A stretch of DNA of 64,000 nt, taken from Onthophagus taurus. Taxonomy: Eukaryota; Arthropoda; Insecta; Coleoptera; Scarabaeidae. The notes beneath the pieces are model-generated. The model was given only the letters and a program-made list of their open reading frames with translations. It was not told where the DNA came from and did no database searches. Made by a program: the position numbers and the translations under genes. The first letter of the stretch is position 1, and every line of letters starts with the position of its first letter. Below are positions 13,424-64,000 of the stretch, one piece after another. The DNA is taken from the NCBI RefSeq assembly GCF_036711975.1, contig NC_091976.1:22196001-22260000 (forward strand). The letters run 5' to 3'.

Positions 13424-16400
13424 ATGTATAAAACTAAAAAGATTATCTTTTGGATTTTATCGATTACAAGTATTTGTAGTTGTTCGAATATTTTAATGAT
13501 CACTATGGGTGGAACAAAATCGCATAAAATACCCTTTTGGGAATTAGCAAGAGGATTAATTCCGAGGGGACATAACATCACGTTTATAAACGCTTTTCCA
13601 CCTGATTTTCATTTACAAGGTTTAGAAGAAATCACTCCGGCTAGTTTTGTTTTTTACGTAAAAAACTTTACTAATTGGGATTTGGTTGGGGCGAGAATTA
13701 AAGGAGAAGAACCCGTACATCCTTTTGATATCGTTAGGTACTCATATGAGGTAAGTTTAGAAAGTTTAAAACCAAATTTTTTACCCCACTAAAAAAAAAT
13801 GATGATCATTTAGTAAAAAAAAAGTGAAACTTTTTTTATTAAATTTCTACTTACATAATAATTTTTTGTAGTTTTCCCGAAAAAGAAAGTTATTAGATAC
13901 GATTTTAAACTTTAGTTATGATTTATGAGTTCACTGAACTTTAATATTATATTTAAATGCAACAATTATTTTAAATCATTTCATTCATATTCTCATAATT
14001 ATCATAATTATATAATTTTCTTGTTTATTTTCTAGACATGCGAATTGCTTTTAACGGACCATGAAACGAGAGGTTTTCTTTCGACGGCAAAAAATTTTGA
14101 ATTAGTCATAATGGATGGGGCTTTTCCAGAATGCACCCTTGGGTTATCGTATTTCCTGAAAATTCCTTTTATGTACATAAATACAGTGGGATTTTACACC
14201 GGATCTTTATCGTTATCCGGCAATCCAACGATGCCTTCATTTACACCGTTTTACGGAAAAGCTTTCACCGATAACATGGGATTAATCGATAGAACTTTGA
14301 ATACTTTATGGTTTGGAGCTGCTAATTTAATGCATATTTTTGCGATGAGATACGTCCATCAAGTATTAAAAAAAGAATTTGGACATGAAATTCCTCATCC
14401 TTATGAATTATCGAAAAACGTCAGTTTTATTTTACAAAATGGACATTCAACTTTAACATATCCCAGAGCTTATTTCCCTAACGTTGATGAAGTTGCTTGT
14501 ATTCACTGTAAAACTGCTAAAAAGTTACCAACGGTAAGATAACATAGCGAAATAACCTATGCGAAGTTAACACCAATTTTTCTTTATTACTCAACCGATT
14601 TTCAGTCATCAAGCTCTTACTTGCAGTGAACGCGAAGGCGGAAATGACCAATCTCAAAAGTCGCTAATTAAAACTTTCGATATTTATGCATCTGAGAGGA
14701 AAAATATAAAAGCGCAATATTATTAAGAGTAAAATTTGCGACAACTTTTATTCTAAAAGTTTCTTTCTAAATCGTTCCAAATCCAGAGCTCTACCAACAA
14801 CAAAATGTAAAATCATGATTTCATCTAATTTTCACCTATTCGAACTTTTCTCGATATTTATACAACTGAGAGCAAAAGTGTAGAAGAGCAATATTGTTAA
14901 GGATAAAATTTGCTACAACTTCTATATTAAAACTTGTTTTCTAAATCGTTCCGAATCTCGTACTCTACCAACAAGTTGTAAAATCACGATTTTACCTAAT
15001 TTTCAGCCATTCGAATATATATGCATCTGACAGCAAAAGTGTAAACCAGCAATATTGATGAGAATATAATTTGTTACAACTTTTATGCTAAAACTTTTTT
15101 TCTAAAACGTTCCAGAGGACATCTTTGGAATCGTTCCAAGACATGTCCAAGGTAAACTGTCTTCCTCGTTTTCACTAGAACTAGAATTCTTCGGTACGTC
15201 CACATTTCAAATGCTTCTATACGCTTCATACTGACAGTCTTCAGAGTCCAAGTTTCCACTCCGTACAGCAGGATTGACCATGCCTAACACTTTTGCGTCT
15301 CAGCAATATAGCGATATCCAATCGTTGATCGCACAAAACTTTCCTAAGTACAATGAAATATTGCCTCGCTTGCTTTACTCTAGATCTTACTCCAATGTCA
15401 TTGTCAAGTCTCAAGTCGATCCAACACCCCAAGTATCTGAAACGATCAACCCTGTTCAATCTCACTTCGTCCACCCTCCCAGGCATGGGGACGTTTGAGT
15501 TATCCCGCAACTCAATCAGCATTACTTTCGCTTTATCGATATTTATGGCCATATTGAACTGCTTGCATGTCCTATTTATTCTGTTTATTATATTTTGTAA
15601 TCCCACATCCATATCGGCAACCAATACGGTATTATCTGGTATTAACGCCATTTATCTTTATTCCATCGTGGCAATCCTTAAGTGCCTCAACAAACAAACA
15701 TTCTGAGTAAATATTAAATAGTGTGAGAGACAGCACCCATCCCTGCCCTACTCCCTTACAGATATCAATATTCTTTGAAGACAATTTATTCTCGCGTTGG
15801 ACTTTCGCAGATTGCTGCCAGTATAGGTTTTGCAAAAGTACTCTATCCATATCATCCAACCCGATCTACTCCAAGAATCACTTGGATCTTTTTGTTGGTC
15901 ATAACATTTTTGTGAGAGGACTTACACTTACGGAAGACAAACTGTTCAGAGGCAATGATAGACTCGCACTTGTTATATATTCTTTTGTGTATAATTTTCA
16001 ACTGGATTTTAAGGGCATGCCTCATTAGACTTATAAGTCTGTAGTCGTTACATGTCTTTGCCCTGTAGTTCTTGGGTATCGGTATAAACTTGACTCAAAC
16101 CAGTCCTGTGGAATTTTACTTGACATATATATCTCATTAAACAATATCAAGAACATATTTTCCTCGCTTATCAGTTTAATCATTTCTGAGTTTATCCAAT
16201 CAGGACCGGGACTTTTATTATTTTTCAGCTGGTTTCAGCTCTGTAGGTTCATCAATGTTGTTTGGCCCCTCCTCGCCACAAAACACTCTGCCATCCGAGT
16301 CCTCCAACACACTTGGCATTTTCTTGTGCATGTTATTCATGCATTGAAGTTTCTCGATTTCCTCACATTTGTCCATCATCTTTCCTCATTCAATCTCTTA

Positions 16401-19162
16401 CACTTCCTCCTGATGTTCTTGACTTCTCGTCTCTTGCCCATCAGATTCAGAATCTCCGAGTCATCCATTCTTTCGTCTTCCTCACTCTTGATTCTAGATT
16501 GTTGTTTGTTACTCCCACAACTATATCTTTAATACTGCTCCGGATGTTCTCTATATCAATTTTATCATTTTTATGCTTGATTTCAGTATTCCAAGCTCTC
16601 TGTTCAGTTGTATGGATGGAGCTGTTCTTGCTCTCCTTCCTCAGGATTCTTAGATTAACAAAATTCTTTCTTGTTGTTAACTTTCGGGCGTCCATACTTG
16701 TACGAGCCGAACACGATGTCATTTTAAGATCTGTATAAGATTAAGGGGTTGATTTCGATAGAAGAATATTGCGAATAGAATGACGTATAGATCTTGATAA
16801 TCGAGTACAGCGTTTACGAGTTATGGTCACCTAAATAAAGAAAGAGATTGCGCTTCAGGCATTTCCGCTGTCGTATTGACTAAGGATTAAGTTTTCAAAT
16901 GATTCTGGATTCGTAGGAAGGCAGGCTGAACCGCTCGCAGCACTTTTACCACAGCAGGTCCCTTGTACTTACTTTTGGTCAGCATTAGGGTGCTTCCAGC
17001 CATATTGTCTTGGAGGCAAAGGTTAGAATTTGTCCTGGTTGTGCTGCCCTGATTCCACTCATACGAATTTGAAGGGTCACGCAGTCGCATAGAATGTGTT
17101 CCGCCGATTCCTCGTGCTCACCGCATCCTCTGCAGATGTCGGTGTCACTTATTCCCATGTTCAGTAAATGCTTCTGTAGATGCCAGTGTTCAGTGATTAG
17201 ACCTATGACTAAACGTAGGTTCTTCCTGGACAGTCTCATAAATAAATCTGTTCGTTTAGGGTACATCAGAGCCTACTTGGCTTGGCGATATCCTAGTGTC
17301 CTGACCCAGTAAGTTAGAAACTTCTTACGTGTTTCCCTTTTTTGAAGTTCTATTAAACACCTTATTGTTGGGGTGATGAATGGTTCTGGCGATCCCGGAG
17401 GTTCGCCTGCAGCTTTTCTTGTCAGTTTGTCCATCATGTCATGAAGCTTATTTCCCTAATGACCCTTTCTCCAGCAGATCGTAATGTCATTACTAGCAGC
17501 TGCCTCACAAAGCTTGTTATGGCAGTCCTCAAGCAACGAGGATGAACAGCGATACCGCCCGAACGAGATGAGGGCTTGTCTGCAATCAGAATATATTATA
17601 ATTTTTTTGTTGAATAAACCGAAGCACCAGAGCTACTTTCCCTACGAGATCCGTCCACCCATAATTGAAGAACAGTTTCGTCGGGCATGGATTGTTCTCC
17701 TACCTTTATTTCATACGGTCGTTCGAAGATAAAACGCGTAGGAATCGTATCTACCCTGCCACTTAGGAGTGGCTGTTTGCTACATGCCTCCTCCCATAGC
17801 TGGCTAGTCGATTTTCCACATTTATAAAGCCATTTATCGTTAGCCGCTCGTAGCTGGATCATTGTTGCTATCACCTCAACGTGATAATTGAGAAAAGGAA
17901 GGCACAGTACATTCTCCATTGCTGCTGTTGGTGTGGTTATCATCAAGCCTGTAACGTAGAGACAAGCCACACGTTGTAATTTTTGTAGTTGCAACACAAT
18001 GGTTTTATTTCTAACTCTTGGCCACCAGTTTACGGCGCCGTAAGTTAATATTGGACGTATCACTGCTTTGTATATCCACATGGATATTTTGGGTGTTAAA
18101 CCCCAGGAGGTCCCAACGACTCTTCTGCACTGAGCAAAAGCAATGCGTGCCTTATTTATCTTACCTTCGATGTGCGGTCTCCTTTTATCCAGGGTTAACC
18201 CCAAATTATTCACATTATTGGCAAAGCTCAAGGGAACTTTGCAAAGCCAGAGCGCTTTAAGGGTACCCAGTCTTCTTTTCCTTGTGAAGAGGATCATCTC
18301 TGTTTTATTCGGGTTCTTTCGAATGAGATATTATTTCTCGAAATCGGTTGAGAGTGTCTCGTACTAAAAAATTTGTTGGCTAATTTCGCATAGGTCGCAA
18401 AAAAAAAATATTATTCGAATTATTTTTTAGGATCTTGAAGAATTTATCAATGAAAGTGGAGAAGCTGGATTTATATATTTCAGTATGGGTTCATCTGTAA
18501 AAGCAGCAAACATGCCTGAATATTTAAGAAGAATGCTTCTTTACGTTTTTAAACAACTCCCACAAAGAGTTCTTTGGAAATTTGAAGATGACATGATGGA
18601 TATTCCACCGAATGTAAAATTAAGTAGATGGCTTCCTCAACAAGACATTTTAGGTCACCCTAAATTAAGAGCTTTCGTAACCCATGGTGGATTATTAAGT
18701 ATGTTCGAAACAGTTTATCATGGAGTTCCCATTGTTTCTTTACCGGTTTTTTGTGACCACGACGCAAACGCGGCCAAAGCTGAATTAGATGGTTACGCTT
18801 TAAAATTAGATTTGGCCACGTTAACTCCTGATAAGCTTTTAAAATCCATTAAAAAAGTTATTCACGATCCAAAATATAAACGGCAAGTAAAGAAGATGCA
18901 GAAATTGTTTAGGGATCAAAAAGAAACTCCGCTACAAAGGGCTGTTTATTGGACTGAGTACGTTTTGAGACACAAAGGAGCCGAACATCTTCAATCGCCT
19001 GCAAGGAATTTAAACTTTTTCCAGTACTATTTAATAGACGTAATCATGTTAATAGTTGCCTCTATAATAATTATACACCGGTTGATTAAGGTTTTTGTAA
19101 AATTGATTTACAGTTACTTAACGGGAAATTTCTCGTTTCGAAAGAACGTCAAAATCGAATAA
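13424..19162 (+). CDS. UDP-glycosyltransferase (membrane-bound insect UGT)
   Basis: Transfers sugar from a UDP-sugar, usually UDP-glucose in insects, to small lipophilic compounds in the ER lumen; typical roles are detoxification, pigment or hormone conjugation. Exons 13424-13750, 14036-14533 and 18431-19162 all join in phase 0 and give 518 residues, the normal family length. Seen: signal peptide (residues 1-20), the N-terminal SH catalytic-histidine region (GGTKSHKIPFWELARG), the donor-binding signature LSRWLPQQDIL..FVTHGGLLSMFETVYHGVP, a C-terminal membrane helix (YYLIDVIMLIVASIIIIHRL) and a short basic tail. The usual DQ pair that contacts the sugar reads D-H here (PVFCDHDANA). The start follows a 3' splice site at 13413, so a 5' untranslated exon is expected. 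A polyadenylation signal lies at 19226. Intron 2 is 3.9 kb and full of transposon relics. UGT subfamily not assigned. Confidence 0.95.
14590..15115. repeat. Three-copy tandem repeat in UGT intron 2, 161-174-bp period
   Basis: The word TATTTATGCATCTGAGAG recurs in diverged form at 14681, 14855 and 15016, and the accompanying AGCAATATT, TTTGCTACAACTT and TTTCTAAATCGTTCC words keep the same order each time. Copies differ at many positions. Monomer size resembles the other arrays in the window, but I see no convincing sequence match to them. Confidence 0.75.
15120..16740 (-). mobile_element. LINE relic, RTE-like endonuclease/reverse transcriptase type
   Basis: Minus strand, reading from high to low coordinates: a linker (about 16722-16447), a reverse transcriptase start with NKSPGPDWINSEMIKLI (about 16210-16150), KGVGQGWVLSLTLFNIYSE (about 15770-15710), the active-site region near 15650-15640, where the expected YADDTVL survives as PDNTVLVADMD, and a thumb segment NRVDRFRYLGCWIDLRLDND. 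Multiple stops and frameshifts. This wording is common in RTE-like insect LINEs; the exact clade is uncertain. Lies antisense in UGT intron 2. Confidence 0.75.
16885..18370 (-). mobile_element. LINE relic with RNase H domain (I/LOA group)
   Basis: Minus strand: reverse transcriptase C-terminus from 18297 (INKARIAFAQCRRVVGTSWG, WIYKAVIRPILTYGAVNWWP), then an RNase H start with LWVDGSRRESSSGASVY (about 17640-17600), a second RNase H block (YSDCRQALISFGRYRCSSS) and a cysteine-histidine tail CRGCGEHEESAEHILCDC near 17145-17100. That order, RT-RNase H-CCHC-like tail, is typical of I-group LINEs. The 5' half (endonuclease and most of RT) is absent and the frame is broken in a few places. It is the second antisense LINE in UGT intron 2 and abuts the acceptor region of exon 3 by only about 60 bp. 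Confidence 0.8.
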
Positions 19163-19960: not shown

Positions 19961-20436
19961 GGTTCATCAAAACAAAGATGTATATATCTGACTGGTCTCT
20001 ATTTAAATTAGTTCTTCTAAATTTTTGAATCAACCTGAATTTTAACTTAATAAAGTTAGCAATTTCATTTCATAGTTTTTAAAGCATCGTGATAAATCGA
20101 ATTCTTAAGATATGTTGACGAATTACTTCTCATTTATAGAGGAAAGATTGTAGTTTTTCGTGAACAAAACCGCACTTAAAAATCTCTATTTGTTGTTGAG
20201 ATAAAAACTTTTGCATTGAAGCCTGTGATAAGATCAATAAACTATAAGGCCGAAGATCTCCTGAAATCCACGAACTTATCCCCTTAGCTCCTCAGATGGC
20301 ACATCACACACCGATCCTGAAGAAATTGTTAACATCCGCGGGGATTACCTTCAGCGTGAAATTGTAAAATACTCTCAATTTAAATAGAACATTCTTGGTC
20401 TAATCTTGTACTTTAAAAAATATCTATGGTTTTAAC

Positions 20437-22873
20437 TAGTGGTGGAACGGATATCCGGCAACTATCCGACATGCGGCCTATTTTTTTAAATCAGAACAAT
20501 TTTTTCAAATTTAGCAATTTTCGAAAAATTAATTCAGTTTTAAAAATTCGTATAAAATCCACTTCTTGGAATATGAGTATGAAAATTTCCCTATATCTTC
20601 CCAATCATCAATTATTAATTAAAGTATCCTCTTTTTAATGCAACAAGCCGTTTTGAAAAATCGCTTTTAGTTTTTGAGAAATAAATTTTTCAAATGATCG
20701 ACAATTTTTTCGAATTTTGCAATTTTCGCCGATTAAGTTTTAAAAATTTGTATAAAATCCACTTCTTGGAATATGAGTATGAAAATTTCCCAAAGTGTTA
20801 ATAAGAGTGTCCTTTTTCCAATGAACCAACATGTTTTGAAAAATAACTTTTAGTTTTTGAGAAAACAATGTTTGAAGTTTTGATAAAATTTTCGATGTTG
20901 CAATTTTCATCGATAATTTTCAAAATTCGCTATAAAATTAATTTCTTGAAAGATCCTTGTAGAAATATCACCAATTATTAATTAAAGTATCCTCTTTTTA
21001 ATGCAACAAGCCGTTTTGAAAAATCGCTTTTAGTTTTTCAGAAATAAATTTTTGAAATGATCGACAATTTTTTCGAATTTTGCAATTTTCGCCGATTAAG
21101 TTTTAAAAATTGGTATAAAATCCACTTCTTGGAATATGAGTATGAAAATTTCCCAAAGTGTTAATAAGAGTGTCCTCTTTCCAATGAACCAACACGTTTT
21201 GAAAAATAACTTTTAGTTTTTGAGAAAACAATACTTGAAGTTTTGATAAAATTAATGCAATTTTCATCGATAACTTTCAAAATTCGCTGTACAATTAATT
21301 TCTTGAAGGATCCATGTGGAAATATCACCAATTATTAATTAAAGTATCCTCTTTTTAATGTAACAAGCTGTTTTGAAATAATCGACAATTCTTTCGAATT
21401 TTGCAATTTTCGCCGATTAAGTTTTAAAAATTCGTATAAAATCTACTTCTTTGAATATGAGTATGAAAATTTTACAAAGTGTAAATAAAAGTGTCCTCTT
21501 TCCTATGAACCAACCCGTTTTGAAAAATAACATGTAATTTTTGAGAAAACAATATTTGAAGTATTGACAAATTTTCGATGTTGCAATTTTCATTGATAAT
21601 TTTCAAAATTCGCTATAAAATTAATTTCTTGAAGGATCCTTGTAGAAGTATCACCAATTATTAATTAAAGTATCCTCTTTTTCATGCAAAAAGCCGTTTT
21701 GAAAAATCACTTTTAGTTCTTTTAAAAGAAATTTTTGAAATAATCGACAATTTTTTCGAATTTTGCAATTTTCGCCGATTAAGTTTTAAAAATTCGTATA
21801 AAATCCACTTCTTGGAATATGAGTATGAAAATTTTCCAAAGTGTTAATAAGAGTGTCCTTTTTCCAACGAACCAACACGTTTTGAAAAATCACTTTTAGT
21901 TTTTGAGAAAACAATAGTTAAAGTTTTGATAAAATTTTCAATGTTGCAATTTTCATCGATAATTTTCAAAATTCGCTATAAAATTAATTTCTTGAACGAT
22001 CCTTGTAGAAATATCACCAATTATTAATTAAAGTATCCTCTTTTTCATGCAAAATGCCGTTTTGAAAAATCACTTTTAGTTCTTTTAAAAAGAATTTTTG
22101 AAATAATCGAAAATTTTTAGAATTTTGCTATTCTCGCCGATTAAGTTTTAAAAATTCGTATAAAATCCACTTCTTGGAATATGAGTATGTAAATTTCCCA
22201 AAATGTTAATAAGAGTGTCCTCTTTCCAATGAATCAACACGTTTTGAAAAGTAACTTTTAGTTTTTGAGAAAAGAATATTTGAAGTTTTGATAAAATTTT
22301 CGATGTTGGAATTTTCATCGATAATTTTCAAAATTCGCTATAAAATTAATTTCTTGAAAGATCCTTGTAGAAATATCACCAATTATTAATGAAAGTATCC
22401 TCTTTTTAATGCAAAAAGGCGTTCTGAAAAATCACTTTTAGTTCTTGACAAATAAATTTTTGAAATAATCGATAATTTTGTCGAATTTTGCAATTTTCGC
22501 CGATTAAGTTTTAAAAATTCGTATAAAATACACTTCTTGGAATATAAGTATGAAAATTTCCCAAAGTGTTAATAAGAGTGTCCTCTTTCCAATGAACCAA
22601 CACGTTTTGAAAAATAACTTTTAGTTTTTGAGAAAACAATTGCAATTTTCATCGATAATTTTCAAAATTCGCTATAAAATTAATTTCTTCAAAGATCCTT
22701 GTGGAAATATCGCCAATTATTAATTTTAGTATCCTCTTTTTAAAGTTGCTTCGTTAGTTAAATCAGCATAAAAAAGTTCATTTTGTATCTTTGATCCAAA
22801 TAAGTTGACATATCTTATCAGCTTTCTTATTAATTTAATTTTTATTCAAATATCGCTATCTGTTCCATCACTA
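20437..22873. mobile_element. Non-autonomous hAT-type element filled with satellite-like DNA
   Basis: The ends are TAGTGGTGGAACGGATA (20437-20453) and, inverted, TAGTGATGGAACAGATA (22857-22873): 17-bp terminal inverted repeats with two mismatches. Both are flanked by the identical 8-base sequence GTTTTAAC (20429-20436 and 22874-22881), the target duplication length of the hAT superfamily. There is no transposase. The interior is a tandem array (separate entry). It sits between the tRNA-Ser and SNMP genes. Evidence for mobility is direct from the borders; family assignment rests on the 8-bp duplication and TIR style. Confidence 0.85.
20500..22740. repeat. Tandem array, about 362-bp dimeric unit of two diverged ~180-bp monomers
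   Basis: The marker AAAGTATCCTCTTTTTAATG begins at 20621, 20984, 21341, 21667, 22030 and 22392 (last, changed copy near 22726), spacings of 363, 357, 326, 363, 362 and 334. Each unit has two related halves: one with AGTGTTAATAAGAGTGTCCT and CCACTTCTTGGAATATGAG, the other with the marker and TTAATTTCTTGAAAGATCC; both contain a TTTTAGTTTTTGAGAAA segment. Short units result from deletions. The array fills the hAT-type element nearly end to end. Confidence 0.88.
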
Positions 22874-22881
22874 GTTTTAAC

Positions 22882-26400: not shown

Positions 26401-29400
26401 GGACTTGGCATAAATCTCTACAAAATTATCAAAATTCTCCAGATATCGTTTGAAATAAAAGGATTTCCTTGAAAATTCATTGGATATCCTAGAAAGTTTT
26501 CTGAACTGCTCAGGAATCACTCGTTAAAATTTGGAATATTTGCATTCGTTACAAATTCCCGTTATAAACCACTGAGTATAATTATAATGCCAGTTATACC
26601 ATAAAGAAATTTGATGGTTTTGAAAATACCCACGAAAATGCTTTCTATTCCACAGTTTACTTTTAATTACTCTATTAATCCCCTATTTGGACGAAGACAT
26701 CTATCAAGTCACTCAGATCGTAGTTTGAGGGAAATAACAGAATTCCATTACAAACTATATCCTCCTATCATAGAGCACATCATAGAGCTTATCATTAAAT
26801 ACATTCTAAGATGTCTACATAGCTTTCCGTCAAGACCTCACCCAATCCAACTATGGCTCCAAATTGATAATGAAATAAGAATCTTTTTTTAAATTCGCCA
26901 AAAATCGAATTTTTCAGATATCGATGTAAAACTTTCAAGTTTTGTTAAGAAACCCGTATTCTTTTTAATAGTGAAAACCGTTTTTAAAAATATCTAACAG
27001 TTATTAAGCAAACAATTTTTTAGACTAACAAAAATTATTGGAGTATTATAAATTTGGTATTTTCCTAAAAAAATCGAGTTTATAAGATATTGTTATAAAA
27101 TGTTCATGATTTAATAAGAAAATTGCGCACTTTTTAGTGGTGAAACCCGTTTTTAAAAATATACAACAGTTTTTGAGATAATAATGTATTAGGCCGACAA
27201 ACATTTTTGGAGTATTTTAAGAATAAATTATTTTCCATAATTTTTTAAAAATTCGCTATAACCCGAGCTTCTCAAATATCGTTATGAAATTTTTAACATT
27301 TATTAAGAAAAGTGTGTTCTTTTTAATGGTGAAAACCGTTTTTAAAAATATCTAAGAGTTATTGAGTAAACAATTTTTTAGACTAACAAAAATTATTGGA
27401 GTATTATAAATTTGGGATTTCCCTAAAAAAATCGAGTTTATGAGATATCGTTATAAAATACTCATGATGTAATAAGAAAAGTGCGTACTTTTTAGTAGTG
27501 AAACCCGTTTTTAAAAATATATAACAGTTTTTGAGATAACAATGTTTTAGGCCGACAAACATTTTTGGAGTATTTTAAGTTATTTTTCTAAATTGTTTAA
27601 AAATTCGCCATAACCCGAGTTTCTCAGATATCGTTATGAAATTTTCAACATTTATTAAGAAAAGTGTGTTCTTTTTAATGGTGAAAACCGTGTTAAAAAA
27701 TATCTAATAGTCTTTGAAACAATCATTTTTTGGATTCACAAAAATTGTTGGAGTATTATAAATTTGGGATTTCCCTAAAAAATTCGCTATAAATCGAGAT
27801 TATAAGATATCATTATAAAATGTTCATGATTTAATAAGAAAAGTGTGTACTTTTTAGTGGTGAAACCCGTTTTTAAAAATATATAACAGTTTTTGAGATA
27901 AAAATGTTTTAGGCCGACAAACATTTTTGGAGTATTTTAAGAATAAATTATTTTCCATAATTTTTTAAAAATTCGCCATAACCCGAGTTTCTCAGATATC
28001 GTTATGAAATTTTCAACATTTAATAAGAAAAGTGTGTTCTTTTTAATGGTGAAAACCGTTTAAAAAAATATGTAATAGTCGTTGAAACAATCATTTTTTG
28101 GATTAACAAAAATTGTTAGAGTATTATAAATTTGGGATTTCCCTAAAAAATTCGCTATAAATCGAGTTTATGAGATATCACTATAAAATGTTCATGATTT
28201 AATAAGAAAATTGCGCACTTTTTAGTGGTGAAACCCGTTTTTAAAAATATACAACAGTTTTTGAGATAATAATGTATTAGGCCGACAAACATTTTTGGAG
28301 TATTTTAAGTTATTCTCCATAATTTTTTAAAAATTCGCCAAAACCCGAGTTTCTCAGACATCGTTATGAAATTTTCAACATTTATTAATAAAAGTGTGTT
28401 CTTTTTAATGGTGAAAACCGTTTTACAAAATATCTAATAGTGTTTGGGGTAACCATATTTTAGATTAACAAAAATTGTTGGAGTATTATAAATTTGGGAT
28501 TTCCCTAAAAAATTCGCTATAAATCGAGTTTATGAGATATCGTTATAAAATGCTCATGATTAATACTTCCTAATATTAAAAAACTTCCTCTTTAAAGCCT
28601 TTGAAATACCTTAAAATGTTTAAAACATTCTAAATGTTCTTAGGAACGTGTGGAAATTCCTTGATATTATTGGAAATCCCTTGAAATTGTTAAGACATTC
28701 TTTGAAAATGTGAAATTCGTTGAAAATTCTTGGATATCTCTGGAATTTAAAAAAAAAATTAAATTCTTAAAAATGTCTGTATATTCTTAGAAAATTGTGA
28801 CAATCATTAAAAAAGCTAGAATAGCGTCGGAAACTCTTTGAATTAGTAAGAAATTCTTGGATGTCCCTGCTATATGAAAAATTCTCTGTAAATCATCAAA
28901 ATTTTTCAAGAATTGTTAAAAATACTTTTATCTATTAAAATGCAGTAAAATAATTAGCAAAATCCTAGATTTTCTTAGAAATCCTTGGAATTTCCTGAAA
29001 TCTCTACACATCTTTTGCAGACGTTGGGAATTTATTACAAGATAGTTAGAAAACACAATTTGAATGGGTTTGAATATGCCCGAATAACCATGAGAATCAG
29101 TATGTACATAGAAATATTTAAAATGCTTAAAAAACCCTATGGAAGTCCTGATAAAACTGTCAATATTGGAAAAATTCAGAGAAAGATAAGTAGACGAAGA
29201 AGCTTGTGTTTCAACTGTAAACAAGAGGAGAAGGAAGAGATCATCCAAAAACCAACTTGATGATTTTGACAAGCATTTTTATTTACATAATGTAACTCGC
29301 CAATTTTATATTATCATTCTCCAATTCGAGAATTTAAATCATTTTTAAACACTAAGAGGAGAATCTAGTATTACGTGATCGTCAGCAATTATTATTTTTT

Positions 29401-60474: not shown

Positions 60475-61671
60475 TTAATGCATTTTTAAATGTCTATTCA
60501 AATGAGTTTTGGATGTAAACCGTTTTTCACACAGATGACAACCATAGGGTTTCTCTCCTGTGTGAATTCTTGTATGAATTTTGAGTTGTCCAAGTTGACT
60601 AAAACCTTTATTACATATTTTACAATCATATGGCTTTTCATTAGTGTGAACGCGTTCGTGCATTTTGAGTAACAACTTGGAAACAAAGCTTTTTGAACAA
60701 TGTTCACAATTAAAAGGTTTTTCCCCTTTATGTATGCGTTCGTGGATTTGTAAATAAGACAAAGAATGTAATGCTTTTCCACAAAACTTGCATACATATC
60801 TTGTTGTTTCATCGTGTGATTTCAAATGACTTTTAAATGTAAATCCACATCTGTATACTTTAGGGCATAGAGTGCATTTATAAACAACGCCTAAATGTGC
60901 CGAATTTTTATGATTATTTAAAGCACCTATTGTTAAATATCTTTTATCACAATCATCACATTTAAAGGGATGATACGTTTTATGATGAAGCTGGGTCATA
61001 TGTTGCTTTAGACTTTTTAATGAAAAAAATATAGAATTACAATCAGTACAAGGAATAGTTTTTTGTTCAATGTTTTGATTATTGTTAGATAAAGGGTCTG
61101 TTATTGTTACATTGTTGGCAGTGGAATTTGATTTGTTTGATTCCGATGGATCTATTTTTTCATTGCAACTTGTATCAACATTAACAAAATTAGGTATAGG
61201 ATTATTTGTGGCATCTTCATCATTGTTTATATGTTCTAATTTAATTGGAATGTGATTATCCATGTTTTGATCTTCATCCTGCTTCTCATCGTTTTCATAA
61301 GATAAATTTTGTTCTAAGGAATAATCATGGTGAATCAACACTTCTTGTTTAACATTACTTTGAGAATTCTCCAATTTCACAACATTGTCTTTAGAGTCAC
61401 TCTTGTTAAATTCATCGACCCACATTTGTAATTGTTTTTCTGCACTCACACAAGTTGTTCTAAATTCATATAAAAGGTCCAATTTGTTCATGCAATGATC
61501 ACATATGTTTTTTGGTAATTGATCTTCTTTTAAAACTGTAATCGACAAACATGCTGAGATTTTTTGATTTATTTCGCTTATATTATTATGTTCCTCAAAT
61601 ATCATTATATTAGCCTCATTTTTGACCAAACATAATCGACATAAATTCATAATTTCGTTAATACTACACAT
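60475..61671 (-). CDS. ZAD-C2H2 zinc-finger transcription factor
   Basis: Intronless 398-residue frame. An N-terminal ZAD domain is shown by the zinc-binding CxxC pairs CRLC (11-14) and CDHC (57-60), in the expected order with ISACLSITV between; ZAD mediates dimerisation and is expanded in insects. A low-complexity acidic, Asn/Ser-rich linker (about 85-205) contains IKLEH and VKQE, possible sumoylation sites. Seven C2H2 fingers run from C208 to the last residue: CTDC, CDDC, CTLC, CKFC, CEHC, CKIC and CHLC, with TGEKPY/KGEKPF/TNEKPY linkers joining the last four, so these probably form the DNA-contacting block. The final finger ends at H398 directly before the stop. Such proteins act in the nucleus as sequence-specific or chromatin-architectural regulators; the target is unknown. 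Likely single-copy lineage member; orthology not assigned. Confidence 0.95.
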   Translation of the reverse strand: MCSINEIMNLCRLCLVKNEANIMIFEEHNNISEINQKISACLSITVLKEDQLPKNICDHCMNKLDLLYEFRTTCVSAEKQLQMWVDEFNKSDSKDNVVKLENSQSNVKQEVLIHHDYSLEQNLSYENDEKQDEDQNMDNHIPIKLEHINNDEDATNNPIPNFVNVDTSCNEKIDPSESNKSNSTANNVTITDPLSNNNQNIEQKTIPCTDCNSIFFSLKSLKQHMTQLHHKTYHPFKCDDCDKRYLTIGALNNHKNSAHLGVVYKCTLCPKVYRCGFTFKSHLKSHDETTRYVCKFCGKALHSLSYLQIHERIHKGEKPFNCEHCSKSFVSKLLLKMHERVHTNEKPYDCKICNKGFSQLGQLKIHTRIHTGEKPYGCHLCEKRFTSKTHLNRHLKMH

Positions 61672-62389
61672 TGTATTTGTTATTTTCCTTTAAATTCATT
61701 AATATCGTGAAAATACTGCTTTTTTGCCCAAATAAACGTCAACATATAAGTACGTAACCTCTCTATTATAAAACCATATAAAACTAAAATCCCTAAACAT
61801 TTTTTATCAAAGAAATTGTATACAATTTCTGTTTTTTAGGCAATACTTTAATATTAATTATATGTACATATGTTGTAACAATATTTCTCAGCAAAATCTA
61901 CGTCTAAGCATTTGAACTAATATGCACGCAACATAATAGAAGAATATACAATATTGAGGTGAAACTGAAAGAGAGTAGTTTGAACAATTTGAAAAACAAC
62001 TTTATATCAACAAGTCAAACTATTCAATGAACACCTTTGAAAATGTTTTCTTTGGACCATGTGTTGTAGATTACATCAGGCAGTATGCACACTGAATGCC
62101 TAAGTTGTTCAGCTAAAGATTGGAATCCAACCTGAAAACTGGGTCAAGTACCTACATAATAATAAGGTACTTAATGTAACCCCAAAGAAAGAAGTTTTAG
62201 GGCATTAATTCAGTTGGCTTGAGACACCAAGACCATCATCACCAACCCATTGTCATTATTTATAGGTACCTGCACGAATTTGTTTGTTGAAATTTACTGT
62301 TTGTATCCTTATTGTTGAATACTTAAGTATTTCTAACATTCTTATGAATAGGTATCCCAATTTTAAACTTCTTCCTCTTTCAGGACGCG
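61672..62389. other. Upstream region of ZAD gene
   Basis: Promoter expected close to 61680-61850. The rest is AT-rich unrecognised spacer. Confidence 0.4.
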
Positions 62390-62740
62390 AATCGCCTGTT
62401 TAGTTTTGCTTCCCTTTATCAATTCATACATAATTGTGTTGAATTGTTGAATAACACAGGATTGAGACTGTCACCTTGATGAATAGTTATTGTTTTCCAG
62501 GATTGTTATAACATCTTTTAGTTACACTCTGCTGAAAGTCTTGGTTAGATCCACAAAGCAGAGGTAAGCTTTGTTCATGAACAATTGGTATTATTCCTTT
62601 GGTATGTTGTCTTGATTTGGAGTTTTCCTGTTTTTTGAGCTTTCCCATTGTCTCTCTTACTTGTTCTTGCGTTATTTGCTCGTGTTTTTCTGGGGAGTTG
62701 TTTTGTGTTTGATTTCTACTGTCGTTTGTATCAACGCTGG
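62390..62740 (-). mobile_element. LINE reverse transcriptase fragment
   Basis: Minus strand: ITQEQVRETMGKLKKQENSK (typical start of the RT fingers), followed in other frames by KAYLCFVDLTKTFSRV and LKDVITILENNNYSS, matching the FICFVDLTKAFD block of the LINE at 42477-43580. Sequence between these two blocks is much shorter than normal, so an internal deletion is present. The 5' side runs into the 172-bp tandem array. Confidence 0.65.
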
Positions 62741-63743
62741 AATAAAAACGATTATGCAAAATGTATTTGGAAGCATTATAGAACATTTTGTAATAACAAA
62801 ACTTTTTTCCTCAGTTTTTAGTTTTTGAGATATAACCTAAATTGATGATTAAAACGTCAAAACAGCGATTTTTGAGATTATAATCAATTAAGTTCGAAAT
62901 AATCAACGCTGAAATAGAAACGATTAGGCAAAAAGTTTTTGGAAACATTATAGCACATTTTGTAATAACAAAACTTTTTTCCTCAGCTTCTAGTTTTTAA
63001 GATATAACCTAAATTGATGATTAAAACGTCAAAATAGAGACTTTTTAGATTATAATCAATTAGGTTCGAAATAATCAACGCTGAAATAGAAACGATTAGG
63101 CAAAAAGTTTTTGGAAACATTATAGAACATTTTCTAATAACAAAACTTTTTTCATCCGCTTTTAGTTTTTGAGATATAACCTAAATTGATGATTAAAACG
63201 TCAACATAGAGACTTTTTAGATTATAATCAAGTAGGTTCGAAATAATCAACGCTGAAATAGAAACGATTAGGCAAAAAGTTTTTGGAAACATTATAGAAC
63301 ATTTTGTAATAACAAAACATTTTTCCTCAACTTTTAGTTTTTGAGATATAACCTAAATTGATGATTAAAACGTCAAAATAGAGACTTTTTAGATTACAAT
63401 CAATTAGTTTCGAAATAATCAACGCTGAAACAAAAACGATTACCCAAAAAGTTTTTAGAAACATGATGGAACATTTTCTAATAACAAAACTTTTTTCTTC
63501 AGCTTTTAGTTTTTAAGATATAACCTAAATTGGTGATTAAAACGTCAAAATAGAGACTTTTTAGATTATAATGAATTAGGTTCGAAATAATCAACGCTGA
63601 AATAGAAACGATTACGCAAAAAGATTTTGGAAATATTATAGAGCATTTTCTAATAACAAAACTTTTTTCCTCAGCTTTTAGATTTTGAGATATAACCTAA
63701 ATTGATGATTCAAACGTCAAAACAGCGATTTTTGAGATTATAA
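62729..63743. repeat. Six-copy tandem array, exact 172-bp period
   Basis: The marker CAACGCTG starts at 62732, 62904, 63076, 63248, 63420 and 63592: five intervals of exactly 172 bp, so no net indels between copies. Each copy includes AACATTATAGAACATTTT, TTTAGTTTTTGAGATATAAC and TGATGATTAAAACGTC. The first and last copies share the variant AACAGCGATTTTTGAGATTA (62861 and 63721) where the inner four have ATAGAGACTTTTTAGATTA. The left end overlaps the LINE fragment border. Confidence 0.93.
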
Positions 63744-64000
63744 TGATATTAATGTAGTGTTATGCAACCAGTATATCACAACATTAATTTATCATATTAC
63801 TCATTTATTTTTAATGTTTAAAATTGTAAAGTTTGGTGTAATACATATAATTTTACATTCTTTATCCAAAAAAGAAATTAATTTAAATAATTAAATTCGA
63901 AATTATAAATAGCATAGCGCCCTCTATGGAATAATAGCTTACAATACTTTTTTAATGTTTACTTTAGTCTTAACCTCAAAGTTTAATCTCGTTCAACGTT
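63744..64000. other. Window end, nothing recognised
   Basis: AT-rich sequence past the 172-bp array with no feature I can support. Confidence 0.4.

What the first reader, a model, noticed from the sequence alone, without database searches (positions are those of the whole stretch)
20429..22881. Satellite-like array enclosed in a hAT-type transposon with a perfect 8-bp target duplication
Seen directly: a tandem array of ~362-bp dimeric units is bounded by 17-bp inverted repeats (TAGTGRTGGAACRGATA) and by identical GTTTTAAC octamers. Known: hAT elements make 8-bp duplications. Inference: the whole array moved as one cassette, so this element class can seed satellite DNA at new sites. A mobile element whose cargo is essentially a higher-order satellite would be a neat mechanism for satellite dispersal and may not be described in this lineage.
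Basis: partly seen in the sequence, partly recalled or inferred. Interest (0 to 1): 0.78.

Follow-up and report, generated by a model that had tools for sequence, protein, structure and literature searches.

The report
Jumping gene carrying a satellite array
The stretch is one copy of a large family of defective hAT-type jumping genes whose cargo is a tandem array of 181-bp repeats, so the element has scattered satellite-like DNA around the genome; similar carriers are known in other transposon classes.

Summary
Observation confirmed. Window 20437-22873 is bounded by 17-bp inverted repeats and identical GTTTTAAC octamers, and holds about six A/B dimers (181+181 bp). It belongs to a large dispersed family: the terminal pattern occurs 1,384 times genome-wide (reversed control 2). 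Of 23 end pairs, 13 carry perfect 8-bp duplications and 18 at least 7/8; 0 of 506 mis-pairings are perfect.

Mobility is shown on a sister copy: its joined flanks align full length at 14 repeat copies that lack the insertion; six were fetched, each with one octamer copy.

hAT identity rests on duplication length and consensus, tip similarity to two transposase-coding hAT elements, and a broken transposase relic between array and right tip. No autonomous partner was found.

Arrays mostly share fixed left and right registers and carry 1 to about 21 dimers; the longest element is 8,099 bp. Long arrays consist of locally related units, short ones less so: small arrays probably transposed, then some grew. 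Seven of 21 arrays show no element end at their visible edges.

The kind is known (Helentrons, Tetris, miDNA4); I found no hAT case in my searches. New variant, moderate interest.

The parts
20429..20436 (.). 8-bp target site duplication, left copy (GTTTTAAC)
   Evidence: identical to right copy; the 13 perfect duplications have T at position 2 (12 of 13) and A at position 7 (11 of 13)
20437..20453 (+). left terminal inverted repeat TAGTGGTGGAACGGATA (L tip), overlapping one TATCCGG subterminal motif
20498..22741 (+). tandem array of A/B dimers (181+181 bp, period 362-363); six A units; first ~105 bp diverged (73% to unit A); one dimer shortened to 321 bp
22735..22856 (+). right region that follows the usual array end (B position ~115); 94-97% identical over ~125 bp to the 39 best other matches listed
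22770..22811 (-). remnant of the hAT transposase relic (reads MSTYLDQRYKMNFF; other copies read LDPRYK opposite the LDPRFK of four hAT ORFs of this genome)
   Evidence: translation; the window copy alone gave no tblastn hit, the relic is recognised through 10 of the 13 whole elements
22857..22873 (-). right terminal inverted repeat TAGTGATGGAACAGATA (R tip)
22874..22881 (.). 8-bp target site duplication, right copy (GTTTTAAC)

Best explanation
Window 20437-22873 is a non-autonomous hAT transposon. The family arose from a hAT element that lost nearly all of its transposase gene (a broken relic remains near the right tip) and that carries, in place of the lost part, a tandem array of a dimeric 181-bp repeat. 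A hAT transposase supplied in trans is inferred to recognise the TAGTGRTGGAACRGATA tips and the TATCCGG subterminal motifs and to cut and paste the whole unit, array included, making 8-bp duplications. Copies were inserted with short arrays (about 1-6 dimers). After insertion some arrays grew locally, probably by unequal exchange or repair slippage, up to about 21 dimers, and some lost recognisable ends. Shown: tips, duplications, shared junctions, empty-site paralogs of one copy, relic, local relatedness of units in long arrays. Inferred: trans-mobilisation, subterminal binding, growth mechanism, and the order of gene loss and satellite capture.
For: Tips: 1,384 matches vs 2 reversed controls. 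Duplications: 13 of 23 pairs 8/8, 18 of 23 at least 7/8, 22 of 23 at least 6/8; mis-pairings 0, 6 and 40 of 506. The C1 sample alone (18 pairs of exact tips): 9 at 8/8, 5 at 7/8, 3 at 6/8, 1 at 2/8. Empty site: joined flanks of the L053 element align over the whole joined stretch at 14 other places (71-90% identity); six fetched (L113-L118) show a single octamer, GTTGTCGT in five and GTTGCCGT in one, with no gap in five and one 1-base gap outside the printed junction in L116. Architecture: 10 of 13 whole elements begin the array at B position 87-90 and 11 of 13 end it at B 115 before the R region; the rest deviate by deletion or divergence. Relic: 10 of 13 whole elements have a hit (E 0.08 or better) to the L107 transposase; best E on the right ends 7.8e-6 vs 0.018 best of 40 shuffled sets; 151 matches at E<=1 among 150 scored candidates, longest open frame 227 aa. 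Cousins: L107 (626-aa BED+hAT ORF, TSD TTATTTAG) and L108 (639-aa ORF, tip TAGTGATGG, TSD 7/8). Array dynamics: nearest neighbour in the same array for 0.71-1.00 of A units in the eight largest arrays, 0.00-0.83 in the six-unit arrays listed, overall 0.53 of 290 vs 0.02 shuffled.
Against: No autonomous element with these tips was found; the one hAT gene seen near a matching tip is a nested insertion of another hAT family with its own ends and AAATTTAA duplication. One of 18 exact-tip pairs (4,056 bp) lacks a duplication, and a pair with mutated tips (L057) has 3/8. 13 of 33 visible array edges, and 7 of 21 arrays, show no element sequence there. Units have no position-specific identity across copies, so multi-unit transposition is argued from divergence levels and one empty site, not from shared unit order. 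The empty site is for a sister copy, not the window copy. L106, L103 and the window copy give no usable transposase hit on their own.
Confidence: 0.88

Rival explanations
1. The array is an ordinary dispersed satellite and the ends are incidental: hAT tips inserted next to pre-existing arrays.
For: Seven of 21 arrays with a visible edge lack element ends there; TIR-less arrays of distantly similar ~180-bp units exist, one in this window at 26884-28565.
Against: Shared array-to-tip junctions in most of 13 whole elements, duplications that flank tip-array-tip, and empty-site paralogs lacking the entire tip-array-tip unit.
Confidence: 0.05
2. Only one dimer transposed each time; every multi-dimer array grew in place after insertion.
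For: The three largest arrays are internally more alike than between arrays (A 0.038-0.049 vs 0.075-0.079, B 0.025-0.059 vs 0.071-0.083); in the C1 tip-selected sample, too, within-array divergence is below between-array divergence of the same unit (A 0.078 vs 0.095, B 0.068 vs 0.089); units show no position-specific identity.
Against: In that C1 sample within-array divergence is about equal to the between-copy divergence of the single-copy R region (0.067, only 6 copies), so the units split about when the copies split or before. In the C1:2218328 element (perfect TSD) none of 6 A or 5 B units has its nearest neighbour in its own array.
Confidence: 0.2
3. A non-hAT superfamily that also makes about 8-bp duplications (P, Merlin; recalled) made these elements.
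For: No intact transposase of its own was found inside the family.
Against: Transposase relic similar to hAT ORFs of this genome; TSD consensus nTnnnnAn (that this is typical of hAT is recalled, not looked up); tip similarity to two hAT elements of this genome.
Confidence: 0.02
4. Composite transposon: two separate small hAT elements flank and co-mobilise an array.
For: Inverted tips at both sides.
Against: The two ends differ from each other and are alike between copies (L: TAGTGGTGGAACGGATATCCGGC; R: TAGTGATGGAACGGATAGTGATTTTG, with some exchange of the G/A at position 6), as for the two ends of one element. A complete small element at one end was not searched for separately.
Confidence: 0.01

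Closest known systems
miDNA4, a Tc1/mariner MITE with satellite DNA in Xenopus tropicalis (Scalvenzi and Pollet 2014; seen only as described in passages of PMC9659126 and PMC12628747)
   Same: Non-autonomous TIR element with an internal satellite of variable copy number; proposed capture of a pre-existing repeat and later loss of ends to give free arrays.
   Different: Tc1/mariner rather than hAT; here a two-type dimer unit, shared array register, hAT transposase relic and 8-bp duplications.
Tetris foldback element of Drosophila virilis (PMC4079207, abstract and outline seen)
   Different: In Tetris the repeats are inside the TIRs; here the TIRs are 17 bp and the array lies between them.
Cg_HINE Helentrons of Crassostrea gigas (PMC7492417, abstract and outline seen) and Drosophila DINE elements with central tandem repeats (row of a table in PMC9659126)
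   Same: Dispersed short satellite-like arrays carried as central cargo; some repeats related to classical satellites; that study also has an empty-site section.
   Different: Rolling-circle class without TIRs or target duplications (recalled); here cut-and-paste hAT.
pearl-family MITEs of bivalves such as DTC84 and CvA (PMC5139131, passages seen)
   Same: Short internal arrays of satellite-like repeats with conserved junctions in a modular non-autonomous element.
   Different: Arrays up to six monomers in the passage seen; a different element family.
hAT element L107 of the same genome (C8:20232900-20236600)
   Same: hAT with similar tip (TAGAGATGGACCG), TATTCGGCC-like subterminal motifs and 8-bp duplication; its transposase matches the relic best.
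   Different: Encodes a 626-aa ORF and has no match to units A or B; not shown to mobilise the AB family.

Membership tests
hAT superfamily | 8-bp target site duplication | tested here: met
   13 of 23 end pairs 8/8, 0 of 506 mis-pairings
hAT superfamily | TSD consensus nTnnnnAn (recalled) | tested here: met
   T at position 2 in 12 of 13, A at position 7 in 11 of 13 perfect pairs; window base composition A 0.335, T 0.346
hAT superfamily | short TIRs similar to those of hAT elements | tested here: met
   17-bp TIR; L108 hAT element shares the first 9 bp TAGTGATGG, L107 hAT has TAGAGATGGACCG
hAT superfamily | hAT transposase encoded, or sequence derived from one | tested here: met
   Only a relic: two collinear pieces similar to L107 aa 395-415 and 448-474, seen in 10 of 13 whole elements; E 7.8e-6 vs 0.018 best of 40 shuffled sets; no intact gene in the 13
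hAT superfamily | mobilisation by a hAT transposase | not testable with these tools
   needs an excision or transposition assay
MITE (short non-coding non-autonomous TIR element) | short, non-coding, high copy, homogeneous length (recalled) | tested here: not met
   High copy and no intact gene in 13 whole elements, but 0.65-8.1 kb and variable in length; 'non-autonomous hAT' fits better than MITE
Satellite-carrying non-autonomous transposons | internal tandem array of variable copy number between conserved ends, at many sites | tested here: met
Classical pericentromeric satellite | long uninterrupted arrays clustered in heterochromatin | tested here: inconclusive
   Copies occur on many contigs and 14 of 21 arrays with a visible edge have an element end, but centromere positions are unknown and 7 of 21 lack visible ends

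The most novel reading that the evidence does not exclude
A hAT family is the founder and main distributor of a satellite: it spread short dimer arrays of one register over the chromosomes, a subset then grew in place to 15-21 or more dimers (one array shows a 3-dimer, 1,092-bp super-period) and some shed their ends, giving free satellite arrays. The A/B dimer structure would then be fixed genome-wide by transposition rather than by exchange between arrays.
Probability: 0.4. Interest if true: 0.62.

Novelty: new variant of a known kind. Interest (0 to 1): 0.5.

Why it matters
How satellite repeats reach new chromosomal sites is an old question. Here a cut-and-paste transposon leaves a readable scar (8-bp duplication, empty-site paralogs) around arrays of different sizes, so one can separate repeats that arrived by transposition from repeats that grew afterwards, copy by copy, in one genome. 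The unit-A motif (5,823 copies at up to 2 mismatches) times the 363-bp dimer is about 2.1 Mb, 0.73% of the 290.8-Mb assembly (arithmetic).

Tried and rejected
Autonomous partner: of four long-ORF hAT loci fetched (L107-L110), none has the AB-family tips or units. L111 was chosen because a hAT domain lies 0.9 kb from a perfect R tip; it turned out to be a different hAT (3394-4880 of L111, own tips TAGTGATGGGCATAATCGA, TSD AAATTTAA) nested in an AB array. I compared by eye the 150 listed hAT domains (150 scored of 1,076 first-look candidates) with the R tips listed (both lists are capped: 661 and 214 were counted): no other hAT domain within about 6 kb. This leaves most tips and most hAT candidates uncompared. 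A 227-aa open frame of the relic at C1:6026703-6026885 lies 2.2 kb from an exact L tip at C1:6024539, a candidate longer copy that I could not read.

Position-specific unit identity, expected if one fixed array order had been copied, was not found: nearest neighbours in other arrays have the same rank for 0.167 of 114 (A) and 0.278 of 54 (B), shuffled 0.193 and 0.273.

The other window arrays (14677-15114, 26884-28565, 62730-63744) were tested for flanking exact inverted repeats of 10 bp or more with duplications: none convincing (1.2 kb of flank for the first two, only 256 bp for the third).

Six joined-flank sites were searched. Only L053 lies in a repeat with many paralogs. The window site matched only its own flanks; the others matched their own flanks plus a second copy of L041's right flank 2.6 kb away and a few short one-sided matches for L047 and the C1:2218 site; none of these spans a junction.

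Literature: seven searches of the held open-access library; no listed title or abstract start describes a hAT element with an internal satellite array, and one search returned none. Only five papers were opened (three by passages, two by abstract and outline). The sequence search for the tips listed six papers unrelated by title. In two reviews searched for 'hAT' the term occurs 0 times (PMC12628747) and twice, both in the reference list (PMC9659126). Most subscription papers, Repbase and Dfam were not searchable. PMC3879986 (Donax MITEs) was not held.

Full report
OBSERVATION. The feature is real and precisely placed. The window holds exactly two matches (up to 2 mismatches) to TAGTGRTGGAACRGATA, at 20437 (+) and 22857 (-), flanked outside by GTTTTAAC on both sides. 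Between them lies a dimeric tandem repeat of period 362-363 bp: units A and B of 181 bp, about 71% alike to each other, and 88-96% alike to the reference unit of their type. The window is C11:22196001-22260000 of a 290.8-Mb, 33-contig assembly. A zf-AD zinc-finger gene at 60475-61689 suggests an insect (that zf-AD is typical of insects is recalled); the species is unknown.

A LARGE FAMILY. The terminal pattern with up to one mismatch occurs 723 times forward and 661 reverse; the reversed control occurs once each way. A 23-bp R-tip pattern occurs 661 times (control 0) and a 27-bp unit-A motif 5,823 times (control 0). The capped place list (exact matches, all on C1 between 1.6 and 37.3 Mb) contains 18 convergent pairs less than 5 kb apart (paired by eye). 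I read the ends of all 18. Nine have perfect 8-bp duplications, five 7/8, three 6/8 and one, 4,056 bp long, 2/8. With five further pairs (window, L041, L047, L053, L056) the total is 13 of 23 at 8/8 and 18 of 23 at 7/8 or better. Two pairs are not in that count: L057 (both tips carry 2 mismatches; 3/8), and the 8,099-bp C2 element (7/8), which was put together from two loci. Mis-pairing octamers of different elements gives 0 of 506 at 8/8 and 6 of 506 at 7/8 or better. The C1 sample favours intact copies because exact tips were required.

ARCHITECTURE. Thirteen whole elements (window included) were dissected. The plan is: L tip (TAGTGGTGGAACGGATATCCGGC), a spacer with TATCCGG motifs, an array that begins near B position 90, n dimers, an array end near B position 115, the R region, and the R tip (TAGTGATGGAACGGATAGTGATTTTGCG). 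Ten of 13 start the array at B 87-90 after a 228-380-bp left part (not the window, L047 and L056), and 11 of 13 end it at B 115 (not L099, at 104, and L103, which has lost the array end). By A units, 3 elements have one (L103's is partial), 4 have two, 4 have three and 2 (window, L106) have six. TATCCGG/CCGGATA motifs occur in the terminal 300-400 bp and not in the middle of any of them (L056 and L103 are too short to have a middle), which fits, but does not prove, transposase-binding subterminal repeats. The largest element with two perfect tips that I saw spans C2:2484487-2492585, 8,099 bp, TSD 7/8, 21 A units.

PROOF OF MOVEMENT. Flanks of six elements were joined with one TSD copy and searched. 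For five no match spans the junction. The L053 element (C7, 1,642 bp, three A units) sits in a repeat that I read as LINE-like: its joined flanks align over the whole joined stretch at 14 other places (71-90%). Six of these were fetched; in each the sequence continues through a single octamer (GTTGTCGT in five, GTTGCCGT in one) with identities of 169-178 of 199. Five alignments have no gap; L116 has one 1-base gap outside the printed junction. So a tip-array-tip unit with three A units was inserted into a pre-existing repeat between the two octamers.

WHY hAT. Four lines agree. (1) 8-bp duplications with T at position 2 (12 of 13) and A at position 7 (11 of 13). (2) Tips like those of hAT elements of the same genome: L108 (639-aa ORF with BED and hAT dimerisation domains; tip TAGTGATGG at both ends, TSD 7/8) and L107 (626-aa ORF, same domains; TAGAGATGGACCG and TAGGGATGTTCCG, TSD TTATTTAG). 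(3) A nested hAT in L111 with TAGTGATGGGCA tips has a perfect AAATTTAA duplication and encodes a hAT dimerisation domain. (4) The R region carries, on the minus strand, two collinear pieces similar to L107 transposase residues 395-415 and 448-474, including LDPRYK opposite the LDPRFK of L107-L110. Ten of 13 whole elements hit L107 at E 0.08 or better; L106 is weak and L103 and the window copy give none. On the right ends the best E is 7.8e-6; the best over 40 shuffled sets is 0.018. A search with the 57-residue relic finds 151 matches at E<=1 among 150 scored of 1,449 candidates, several in one uninterrupted frame, the longest open frame 227 aa; several lie about 20-120 bp from R tips listed (for example C1:38608175 beside 38608057, C2:23722952 beside 23722855). 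The window copy keeps MSTYLDQRYKMNFF at 22770-22811 (translation). The family is therefore made of internally deleted hAT elements.

HOW ARRAYS EVOLVE. From 298 A and 258 B nearly full-length units in 73 array clusters (loci brought in by array, tip and R-region searches, so a mixed sample), within-array divergence is 0.056 (A) and 0.050 (B) and between-array 0.084 and 0.081. The nearest neighbour lies in the same array for 0.53 of 290 A and 0.62 of 245 B units, against 0.02 in shuffles. Large arrays carry the effect: 0.71-1.00 of A units in the eight largest; among the six-unit arrays listed it ranges from 0.00 to 0.83. Not every large array is homogeneous (one 9-unit array: within 0.088, between 0.100). 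One element with six A units and a perfect TSD (C1:2218328) has no unit nearest to an array-mate. In the C1 tip-selected loci, within-array divergence (A 0.078, B 0.068) is below between-array divergence of the same units (0.095, 0.089) and close to the between-copy divergence of the single-copy R region (0.067, six copies only; over all 41 R copies, mostly picked for similarity, it is 0.033). I read this as: short arrays were mostly multi-unit when inserted and have since decayed by point mutation, with some later exchange, whereas the longest arrays gained units in place. One array (C6:15803111-15807294, L033/L034) shows a 1,092-bp, three-dimer super-period (read from the repeating identity pattern). 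Against a strict cassette model, units show no position-specific identity from copy to copy.

ARRAYS WITHOUT ENDS. I examined 29 loci that were brought in through the array (L002-L008, best matches to the whole element; L016-L018 and L020-L038, matches that begin at query position 51 or later, past the tip; L010-L015 and L019, which matched through the tip, were left out). They show 33 array edges: 20 continue into element sequence, 13 do not. By array, 14 of 21 have at least one element edge and 7 have none at the visible edge(s); some of the latter may be truncations, nested insertions or ends beyond the locus. The whole-element query may favour arrays with ends somewhat.

ORIGIN OF THE REPEAT. 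The array at 26884-28565 of the same window has no flanking TIR found, the same 362-bp dimer design, and units 68-70% identical to A and B (z 9.1 and 11.5 against shuffles). Its wider relatives, mostly 64-68% identical, form arrays on many contigs. AB therefore belongs to a wider group of ~180-bp repeats. Capture of such a repeat by a deleted hAT, or birth inside the hAT and escape, are both open.

KNOWN OR NEW. Transposons that carry and spread satellites are established: Helentrons and DINEs, Tetris, miDNA4, pearl MITEs. In seven searches of the held open-access library I found no hAT case; Repbase, Dfam and most subscription papers could not be searched. I rate it a new variant of a known kind: hAT chassis, two-type dimer, shared register, transposase relic, hundreds of copies, and a readable split between arrival and growth.

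Noticed in passing
window 26884-28565: A second 362-bp-dimer array without flanking TIRs found, 68-70% similar to units A and B; close copies (84-86%) at C11:33.71 Mb in both orientations and many 64-68% relatives on other contigs.
   Followed up: partly
window 62730-63744 and 14677-15114: Two more tandem arrays with 172- and 174-bp periods; the first carries a CTTTTAGTTTTTGAGATAT box that resembles a box of units A and B, but whole-unit similarity is little or not above shuffles (z -0.5 to 2.6).
   Followed up: partly
L111 3394-4880 (C3:6049300-6055300): A different hAT with TAGTGATGGGCATAATCGA tips and AAATTTAA duplication, nested inside an AB array; it keeps transposase pieces including the dimerisation domain.
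   Followed up: yes
L107 (C8:20232900-20236600); also C11:3121323, C11:6164136, C11:10093155: Four copies (100% protein identity as rounded, open frames of 627) of a hAT transposase gene; in L107 a perfect TTATTTAG duplication flanks the element, suggesting recent activity.
   Followed up: partly
C1:6026703-6026885: Longest open frame (227 aa) over the AB-family transposase relic, 2.2 kb from an exact L tip at C1:6024539; candidate longer or less deleted copy.
   Followed up: no
window 18431-19162: Exon with a UDP-glucuronosyltransferase C-terminal part (Pfam UDPGT); the AB element starts about 1.3 kb downstream of it.
   Followed up: no
L053 flanks (C7:32193293): The insertion target is a repeat that reads like a CCHC zinc-knuckle coding region of a LINE (my reading of the letters, not run through a tool).
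   Followed up: no
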